A stretch of DNA of 64,000 nucleotides from NCBI GenBank assembly GCA_964019135.1, contig OZ025260.1:31552254-31616253 (forward strand), in the 5' to 3' direction. Shown in pieces: positions 59,301-62,300 of the stretch (positions are counted from its first letter, which is position 1; each line of letters starts with the position of its first letter). This stretch comes from Arenicola marina. Taxonomy: Eukaryota; Annelida; Polychaeta; Arenicolidae. The translations under genes and the position numbers were made by a program. The notes beneath the pieces were generated by a model that saw only the letters and a program-made list of their open reading frames with translations, searched no databases and had not been told where the DNA came from.

Positions 59301-62300
59301 AGATGCACAAAATCTTTGCAGGAATTCCCGAAAAGCGATCACGCAAACCATCCCATCACTCGATTGACCCCGACGAGATGACTAACCTGGGTTCCATCAG
59401 ATCAACTGCTTCCAATTTCATGCAACTCTTGAAGCCGTGTCGAGGGATTTCCTGAAGAAACATCTCCAATATTATTGCGTACACAAACCTGAACAAGGTT
59501 AAATCGTATCTAGAAGGAAATTATTTATGGTAACATGGAAAGAGATCAGGTATTTGAACTATCTACGACATTCTTTGACGGTTCTGTAACCTTAATAAAC
59601 CGAGAAACAATCGGTAAGAAAACATTCAGAGCATAATCATTGATGGCACTGTTAAGTTTAAGGCGAAAACAAAATAAAAGCCAAGAAGTTAGGTCTAACC
59701 TTGTCAAAGAGTTTGACTGGCGCCGCTGTGGCTTTGCACTGCCGCAAGTAATCAAACCACTTAAATTGGCCTTTGTACCCTGAAAACGACAAATAAATTA
59801 TAGTCATGGAAATTTTAACCAAATGTCGATATCAACGATAAAAGTAAGCACATGTCAAGAAAGGAACAACGAAACCTAGGTATATGTCAAAATTACAATA
59901 ACGATGTTTTGAGCTTGAACCTCGGTAAGTATAAGTCAAAGTTACCTATCAGGTCATATAGCACATTCAGCTATCAGGGAATATAGCATATTCAGCTATC
60001 AGGGAATATGTCAGAGTTAACGGAAGACGACTAATAATTTTCAATGAAATGGCGGAAATACTGAACAATTTGCTTTCAAAAAGACACTACAGACAGATGG
60101 AGCATGCCTTGTAAAGTACGGCCTTACGCCGCTTTTAAGGCCGAGGTCAAGTTAGTGCGTCGCAGGGCGGTGTCGTTCCGCCTCTTACCTCTAGGGGGCG
60201 CCAGTTCCAGAGAGTTGATCTCACAGAAACCGACGGGGAATATACATGGTGAGGTGGCGTGAAAGCAGAACCAGTCAGAGCCGTTCTCCGCCATCGACCC
60301 GTCCACCCCGATCATCAAATAGTTATTGCGAAGCACCTGAAACACGTAAAATAATTCAAGCTGGTGAGGAAGAGCGCAGCATAATGGGTAGGTTCGTGTT
60401 ATAGGAGGTACACATTCGACAGTGGTCAAAGGGTCCATCCTTCATAGTAGGGCCAACGAGAAGCATTATTGTAGTAAATGTTTAGCGTGAGCAATGAGTG
60501 AGCTGTATGGAAACAATGGTTGGCACGACGAACATGGAGGAGCGACCGGTTAATTGCATGGCAATCACGAGACATACAAGAAGAAAGCCAAACCATATTC
60601 TATACGTCCCTTGAACCGACATGATGTATTGTGTCTTTCCCACTTCCATCCAACATGGTTCGGGTCAGGCCGAATCATGTACATATCATGTGACAGTTTC
60701 CTCGCAACATAAAGCCCAAGAACTTGGGACAACTGTCATCACCGCTTCAGCCAACTATTACACACTGAGATTGGGAGGAATCCGTCAGCTCCGTGAACAC
60801 GCCAGCGCACACATAGCGCGTAATTATTGAACCCACTAAACGGACGAATATATACCGAAACATCTGGACTAAACTTTGATTTGGTGACTGGCGATTTACT
60901 AAGTTGGTGACGTACCAAACTAGGGTTAGTTATATATTGATTCTATATTTTGGAACCCTCCAACATTTGATCTCTTTCGGACCCTAATGTGTCATAATGA
61001 TGTAACGACCCTGAGGAATTTGGCAATGTGTATATATCTTATTGAAAATCGTCTCTGTTCCACCAAGTAAATGTATGTTTCTCAAAATACTGCGCACCAT
61101 GCAAACTGATTGTATAATTATATGTTGTGTCATTTGGGCCTTAAGGCCTTAACCAACAACAGCATAGGATTCAGAAGACTTCTAGACGTAAATGATTCAG
61201 ACATGTAATTAGGGTGGGTACCTTAACTAATAAGTGGCCCTCAAGCTTCTAGACGTACATGATCTAGACACGCAATTATGCTGGTGACGTACCTTCATGA
61301 CAGTGGCCACACAGATGGGGGAGAGGTTGAGGGGGTCAATGGCCCCCAAGCTTCTAGACGTACATGATCTAGACACGCCATGATGCTGGTGACGTACCTT
61401 CATGACAGTGGCCACACAGATGGAGGAGAGGTTGAGGGGGTCAATGGCCCCCAAGCTTCTAGACGTACATGATCTAGACACGCCATTATGCTGGTGACGT
61501 ACCTTCATGACAGTGGCCACACAGATGGAGGAGAGGTTGAGGGGGTCAATGGCCTCCAGCTTCATGCCGCTATGAAACTTGACCCCGTTTTGTCCAGTCG
61601 GAGGATCTCGCAGCTATAAACACCAAAACCAACAGACTGAGGGTCAATGTATTTGTGGAAAGGTATGTTAAACAAACAATAATTCAATCCACTGTGGTTG
61701 GTTGGTTGGTTGGCGAAAGACATTGGAATTGCAGCTTTTGGGTTGTGGTGTAATACGATTTGCCTCGCGCTTATATGACTGAATAAGCCTAGCATATCCA
61801 CTAGTTTAACGAGAAATAAACTTTATCGAAAGTTCAAATACGTTGATATTGATAAAATTATTTCGAATGAAATAATGAATTGGTATAAAGCCACCTGTAT
61901 AGACGTATCACACTATCGAAGATTGAACTATAGATGTCGTCGACACGGAAGGAACGGAACAAGTGATAAATCAACAGCCTACCTTGACGAACATATCTGG
62001 CGAAGCATCCTTTTCACAGTAGGCTTTTAATGCTGCCTTATTGAGTGATTCAGTTTTATAATCTACACGAAGACAAAAGAATATCGCGTTTTTCATCAGT
62101 GTTGGAAAATCCACTGTGAAGCTAAAAATTGCATTCACGTTTCTCTGTGATCATTACAGAGCATCAAAACAGAAGAAATTAGTTCGCTATTTGATGTCAT
62201 TGCGAGTACATACCCAGGGGAGAAAAAGATACAGAGACATGTTCATACAATATTTATATATAGGTATAATATTATTTTTATTTGGCTTAAAGTACCGAGA

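What the first reader, a model, noticed from the sequence alone, without database searches (positions are those of the whole stretch)
61237..61613. In-frame triplication of an MBT-domain exon end and donor inside a Polycomb gene
The end of the MBT3 exon, its donor and 50-odd bases of intron are repeated three times at exactly 105 bp. All three donors are ATGAAG|GTACGT, and the intervening sequence has no stop in frame. Use of the second or third donor would insert 35 or 70 residues in the middle of the methyl-lysine-binding fold. This could give natural isoforms, or be tolerated because the first donor wins.
Basis: partly seen in the sequence, partly recalled or inferred. Interest (0 to 1): 0.8.

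Follow-up and report, generated by a model that had tools for sequence, protein, structure and literature searches.

The report
Tripled splice donor in MBT gene
In an animal chromatin gene, a 105-base stretch covering the end of one exon and its splice donor has been copied three times in tandem, with a decayed fourth copy, most likely through the ordinary repeat expansion common in this genome; whether the extra donors are ever used is not known.

Summary
Three 105-bp copies (3-4 differences per pair) carry the end of the MBT3 exon, an identical donor AAG|GTACGT (GT at 61502, 61397, 61292) and about 50 bases of intron. The frame is open through all three, so donors 2 and 3 would add 35 or 70 residues. 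The gene is a four-MBT protein of the MBTD1/L3MBTL2/Sfmbt group, with a probable SAM domain. Splicing from donor 1 gives an ungapped match to human MBTD1. MBT3 lacks the aromatic methyl-lysine cage, which MBT4 has, so "methyl-lysine-binding fold" is overstated. About 30% of 20 sampled 10-kb stretches of this 867-Mb genome lies in tandem arrays, so the array looks like local repeat expansion that happens to cover a splice site, perhaps seeded at a short exon-intron similarity. Published human libraries show that the first of two equal tandem donors predominates, which predicts mostly normal protein with at most minor longer isoforms. No RNA could be examined. Internal tandem duplication of splice sites is a known kind; this is a tidy new member, of modest interest.

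The parts
61503..61613 (-). Canonical MBT3 exon (111 nt, after acceptor TTTATAG), ending MK| in phase 0
   Evidence: MBT profile hits; ungapped match to MBTD1 when joined to 60336
61455..61559 (-). Repeat copy 1 in the register: last 57 nt of the exon, donor 1 (GT at 61502) and 48 nt of intron
61350..61454 (-). Repeat copy 2 with donor 2 (GT at 61397); its use would add 35 residues
61245..61349 (-). Repeat copy 3 with donor 3 (GT at 61292); its use would add 70 residues
61179..61224 (-). Decayed fourth partial copy: unit net 38 bp shorter, most of the exon part lost, donor weakened to AAGGTACCC (score 3.8 against 9.1), in-frame TAG just before it
   Evidence: family D2, spacing 67; local score 49.5 against at most 25 in 1000 single-base shuffles and 30 as best of the tiles elsewhere in the window; donor score; stop
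60189..60336 (-). Next exon, second half of MBT3 ([13 protein letters not shown]...), acceptor TTTCAG|G
58256..58522 (-). Open frame holding the main MBT4 exon with the F, W, Y cage residues (exon ends not fixed)
55526..56536 (-). Open frame with the first half of a probable SAM domain; a likely second half starts near 53945 on the same strand
   Evidence: SAM_1, E 0.0086, 16.9 bits, below the cut-off of 23; for the second half, found by a text pattern only

Best explanation
A short similarity between exon (GAAGCTGGAGG) and intron (GAAGCTTGAGG) allowed an unequal exchange or slippage that duplicated the exon end, donor and first intron bases. The 105-bp unit was then re-expanded or homogenised, leaving one old decayed copy on the intron side and three near-identical ones. 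This is minisatellite-type expansion, common in this genome, that happens to cover an exon-intron boundary. The gene tolerates it because the first of the identical donors is used most, giving the normal MBT3. Because the unit is a multiple of three without a stop, leakage to donors 2 and 3 gives in-frame proteins with 35 or 70 extra residues near the end of the second strand of MBT3, probably at low level. Shown: sequence anatomy, frame, fourth copy, gene group, repeat-rich genome. Inferred: exchange mechanism, recent age, donor usage, tolerance, position in the strand.
For: Copies nearly identical, with a diverged fourth. Short exon-intron similarity at the junction, 10 of 11 bases. 29.7% of 20 sampled 10-kb stretches is in TRF arrays (21.9% without the two that are wholly array), 13 of 20 hold an array of period 60 or more, and the window has 18.5% (sample positions were round numbers on contigs C1-C13). 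Donor 1 joined to 60336 gives an ungapped match to human MBTD1 MBT3, 59 of 81 identical. The first of two consensus tandem donors predominates in designed libraries (PMC6783452). Exons would be 111, 216 and 321 nt; the shortest is nearest the usual animal exon size (recalled). Openness and frame are expected about one time in six by chance.
Against: No RNA evidence. The library paper says that it resolves 'earlier conflicting evidence'; from recall, some older duplicated-donor work favoured the intron-proximal site. The libraries are human, with both donors inside a variable region of 147-162 nt, so spacings were probably below 105 nt (not checked). Sequence elements between competing donors can shift the choice (PMC1877881, passages). 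The three donors are equally strong: 23 of 3991 GTs on this strand, these three included, score as high, so substantial use of donors 2 or 3 cannot be excluded. How often arrays cover coding boundaries in this genome was not measured.
Confidence: 0.72

Rival explanations
1. The extra donors are used at meaningful levels and make natural isoforms with 35 or 70 residues inserted in MBT3, altering partner binding or stability of the protein.
For: Identical strong donors, open frame, unit divisible by three. The copy next to the downstream exon still supplies AIDPLNLS(S/P)ICVATVMK, so a strand could be completed by another copy (inference).
Against: The insert has no counterpart in the MBTD1 and L3MBTL2 chains, which align without gaps (four alignments shown); Sfmbt differs by at most one residue in length over the stretch by its coordinates. 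Beyond the junction there are three differences among copies and all three change a residue (N to H, S to P, and G to C beyond donor 3), so there is no sign of constraint, though three changes are too few to test. The first donor is favoured in designed libraries.
Confidence: 0.17
2. [quoted passage not shown]
For: Each copy ends ATGAAG|GTACGT, an AG|GT proto-splice site; the stretch before it (copy 3) is 71% pyrimidine, against 66% before the real acceptor at 60336. Tandem duplication of AGGT segments is a documented route to introns (PMC3443670, PMC4974935, PMC2891723; passages only).
Against: The internal AG scores 2.0 against 7.2 and 9.4 for the two real acceptors of this exon pair, and 1077 of 3546 AGs on this strand score as high (matrices recalled).
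Confidence: 0.06
3. Assembly artefact: the true number of copies is different.
For: No reads were available; tandem arrays are a common place for assembly errors (recalled).
Against: Copies carry private differences, a decayed fourth copy lies beside them, the array is only about 330 bp in a contig of 42 Mb, and one place only was found.
Confidence: 0.05

Closest known systems
[quoted passage not shown] PMC3443670, PMC4974935, PMC2891723, passages seen)
   Same: Tandem duplication inside a gene of a segment carrying AG|GT, creating extra splice sites
   Different: Here the segment spans a real exon-intron boundary and copies the donor; no acceptor of normal strength is copied, so extra alternative donors and not a new intron are expected
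Fission-yeast genes with several tandem copies of a 24-bp AGGT segment (Zhu & Niu 2013, as described in PMC4974935)
   Same: Several head-to-tail copies of one AGGT-bearing unit in frame (24 and 105 are multiples of three)
   Different: There the unit is exonic and transcripts show an intron across two or four copies; here the unit is half intron and no transcript was seen
Potato RdRp boundary duplication (PMC4974935, passages)
   Different: There the copied stretch brought an acceptor and a new intron arose; here the donor side is copied, three times, and usage is unknown
Tandem 5' splice sites of equal strength (designed libraries, PMC6783452)
   Same: Identical donors in competition for one acceptor
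   Different: Natural, three donors, 105-nt spacing, arisen by repeat expansion
MBTD1 / L3MBTL2 / Sfmbt four-MBT proteins
   Same: Third MBT repeat aligns without gaps to human MBTD1, 59 of 81 identical
   Different: Probable SAM domain on the C-terminal side, as in fly Sfmbt (recalled); array at the MBT3 splice junction

Membership tests
Four-MBT protein of the MBTD1/L3MBTL2/Sfmbt group | Four MBT repeats in one gene | tested here: met
   6 of the 16 MBT profile matches in the assembly lie in the window and fall on four repeats (one of the six, in MBT2, runs over an intron and holds stops). Pfam finds MBT in 4 of the 5 MBT exon frames given, not in the first MBT1 piece 63824-63991
Four-MBT protein of the MBTD1/L3MBTL2/Sfmbt group | Closest solved relatives are this group | tested here: met
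   MBTD1 E 6e-56, L3MBTL2 3e-51, Sfmbt 4e-43, next 7e-24, of 28 sequences listed
Polycomb protein Sfmbt type | C-terminal SAM domain (recalled) | tested here: inconclusive
   First half E 0.0086, under the curated cut-off; second half seen by text pattern only
Methyl-lysine-binding MBT repeat | Semi-aromatic cage with D, F, W, Y | tested here: not met
   MBT3 keeps D but has V, S and G in place of F, W and Y; MBT4 of the same gene has the four (MBT4 joined from two exons by eye). In MBTD1 only MBT4 has the cage (PMC2747274)
Tandem-duplication intron gain | Duplicated AG|GT proto-splice site | tested here: met
   AAG|GTACGT in the three copies
Tandem-duplication intron gain | Usable acceptor at the duplicated AG and removal of the unit from mRNA | tested here: inconclusive
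   Weak acceptor score 2.0; removal needs RNA, not available
Alternative 5' splice-site isoforms | Transcripts from more than one donor | not testable with these tools
Minisatellite-type tandem array | Head-to-tail near-identical copies | tested here: met
   TRF period 105, 3.1 copies, 96% matches
Minisatellite-type tandem array | Copy number varies between individuals | not testable with these tools
   One assembly only, one place found

The most novel reading that the evidence does not exclude
A copy-number-variable minisatellite sits on a coding exon's splice donor, so that individuals with different copy numbers make different sets of MBT3 length isoforms (+35n residues), giving a heritable tuning of a chromatin-complex subunit.
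Probability: 0.08. Interest if true: 0.65.

Novelty: new member of a known kind. Interest (0 to 1): 0.33.

Why it matters
It is a natural three-way competition between identical splice donors, equally spaced and in frame, which would test in vivo whether order alone decides donor choice. It also shows how a repeat-rich genome can place expanding repeats over a splice site without breaking the frame. It does not by itself show a new mechanism.

Tried and rejected
Selection on the extra copies: too few differences (3-4 per pair; three beyond the junction, all changing a residue) to tell. Dispersed element: one place only was found in the assembly (that search skips very common words). Intron position in paralogues: 10 of the 16 MBT matches lie outside the window, and 9 of these 10 span at least 65 of the 69 profile positions without a stop, so those exons are not interrupted there and the MBT3 intron position could not be confirmed from them; it rests on the ungapped match to solved proteins. 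Structure prediction was not run: the spliced protein is joined from two exons and is not a letter-for-letter translation of the window. Organism: COX1 is open with the invertebrate mitochondrial code (TGA as Trp); AGA as Ser fits conserved motifs from recall, no alignment was made; a tRNA scan of that locus found none; the species was not identified. Prior art: the searches showed no title or abstract start with a tripled donor (searches returned no paper; one search listed 15 of 20), but Zhuo et al. 2007 and Gao & Lynch 2009, the most likely places (known here from a reference list), are not held, so absence from print is not claimed. The MBT papers were seen as listings only, except PMC2747274 (passages). 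Splice matrices are recalled human-type frequencies, so scores are relative only.

Full report
What is there. On the minus strand the third MBT exon of the gene runs from 61613 to 61503 and ends MK in phase 0. A 105-bp unit, in the register the last 57 bases of that exon and the first 48 of the intron, is present three times head to tail, with 3, 4 and 3 differences between copies. Each copy carries AAG|GTACGT; the GTs begin at 61502, 61397 and 61292. The donors are strong: 23 of 3991 GTs on this strand of the window, these three included, score as high with a recalled human-type matrix. The frame is open from 61613 to a stop just beyond copy 3. Joining each donor to the acceptor at 60336 gives exons of 111, 216 and 321 nt and inserts of 0, 35 and 70 residues.

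A fourth, diverged partial copy lies directly downstream (spacing 67 instead of 105). It aligns to the unit with local score 49.5, against at most 25 in 1000 single-base shuffles and 30 as the best of the tiles elsewhere in the window. Most of its exon part is gone, its donor is weakened (AAGGTACCC, 3.8 against 9.1) and it follows an in-frame stop. So the array probably has an older history, and the three good copies are a recent expansion or have been homogenised (inference). Copies 2 to 4 share the junction GAAGCTTG followed by GGGCC, and the original exon has GAAGCTGGAGGCC; exon and intron agree in 10 of 11 bases there, a place where the first duplication can have formed (mechanism inferred).

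Which gene. The joined MBT3 matches human MBTD1 without gaps (59 of 81 identical), then L3MBTL2, then fly Sfmbt. Six MBT matches of the assembly lie in the window, on four repeats, and Pfam finds MBT in 4 of 5 MBT exon frames given (the first piece of MBT1 gave none). A SAM domain is probable: its first half scores E 0.0086, below Pfam's cut-off, and the second half was seen by text pattern only. The gene is therefore of the MBTD1/L3MBTL2/Sfmbt group, perhaps the Sfmbt-like form (recalled). In MBTD1 only the fourth repeat holds the methyl-lysine cage (PMC2747274, passages). In the window's gene MBT4 has D, F, W and Y at what I take to be those columns, and MBT3 has D but V, S and G in place of F, W and Y (placing the paper's numbered residues is mine, and MBT4 was joined by eye). 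The insert would fall near the end of strand 2 of MBT3 (inferred from the paper's description of strands and loops), not in a cage.

How surprising. A 17-codon intron stretch is open in a given frame in 591 of 1241 overlapping windows of the neighbouring introns and in 4848 of 9136 on this strand, and a unit is a multiple of three one time in three, so in-frame openness is about a one-in-six event. Tandem arrays are abundant: 29.7% of 20 sampled stretches of 10 kb (21.9% without the two that are wholly array), 13 of 20 with an array of period 60 or more, and 18.5% of the window itself. An array touching a coding boundary somewhere is to be expected in such a genome; how often it happens was not measured.

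How it most likely works. With designed tandem donors of equal strength the first is predominantly used (PMC6783452, section 7 read). That predicts mostly normal protein, with possible leakage to longer in-frame forms. The caveats: the libraries are human, both donors lie within 147-162 nt, the authors mention earlier conflicting evidence, and elements between competing donors can shift the choice (PMC1877881, passages). The Rogers-type alternative, removal of each 105-nt unit as an intron, has the needed AG|GT and a pyrimidine-rich stretch (71%) but a weak acceptor score (2.0 against 7.2 and 9.4; 1077 of 3546 AGs score as high). An artefact is unlikely given the private differences and the decayed copy, but no reads were seen.

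Known or new. Internal tandem duplications that copy splice sites are a known class (PMC3443670, PMC4974935, PMC2891723, passages), and fission-yeast genes with several tandem copies of a 24-bp AGGT unit are described. This is a new member with three identical donors; the two earlier genome surveys most likely to hold such cases could not be read.

Noticed in passing
window 1-64000 and L019-L038: The genome is very rich in minisatellites: 48 TRF rows in the window; two of 20 sampled 10-kb stretches are wholly tandem array.
   Followed up: partly
61468, 61363, 61258 (minus strand): Each repeat copy holds a second donor-like site CATGTACGT (score 5.75) 34 bases after the main donor.
   Followed up: no
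L018: Mitochondrial COX1 of this genome is open with the invertebrate code: 15 TGA and 1 TGG codons, 5 AGA, no AGG and no AGC in the frame read.
   Followed up: partly
window 47857-51127 and 17587-19771: Two long minisatellites, 29 bp x 113 and 34 bp x 64 copies.
   Followed up: no
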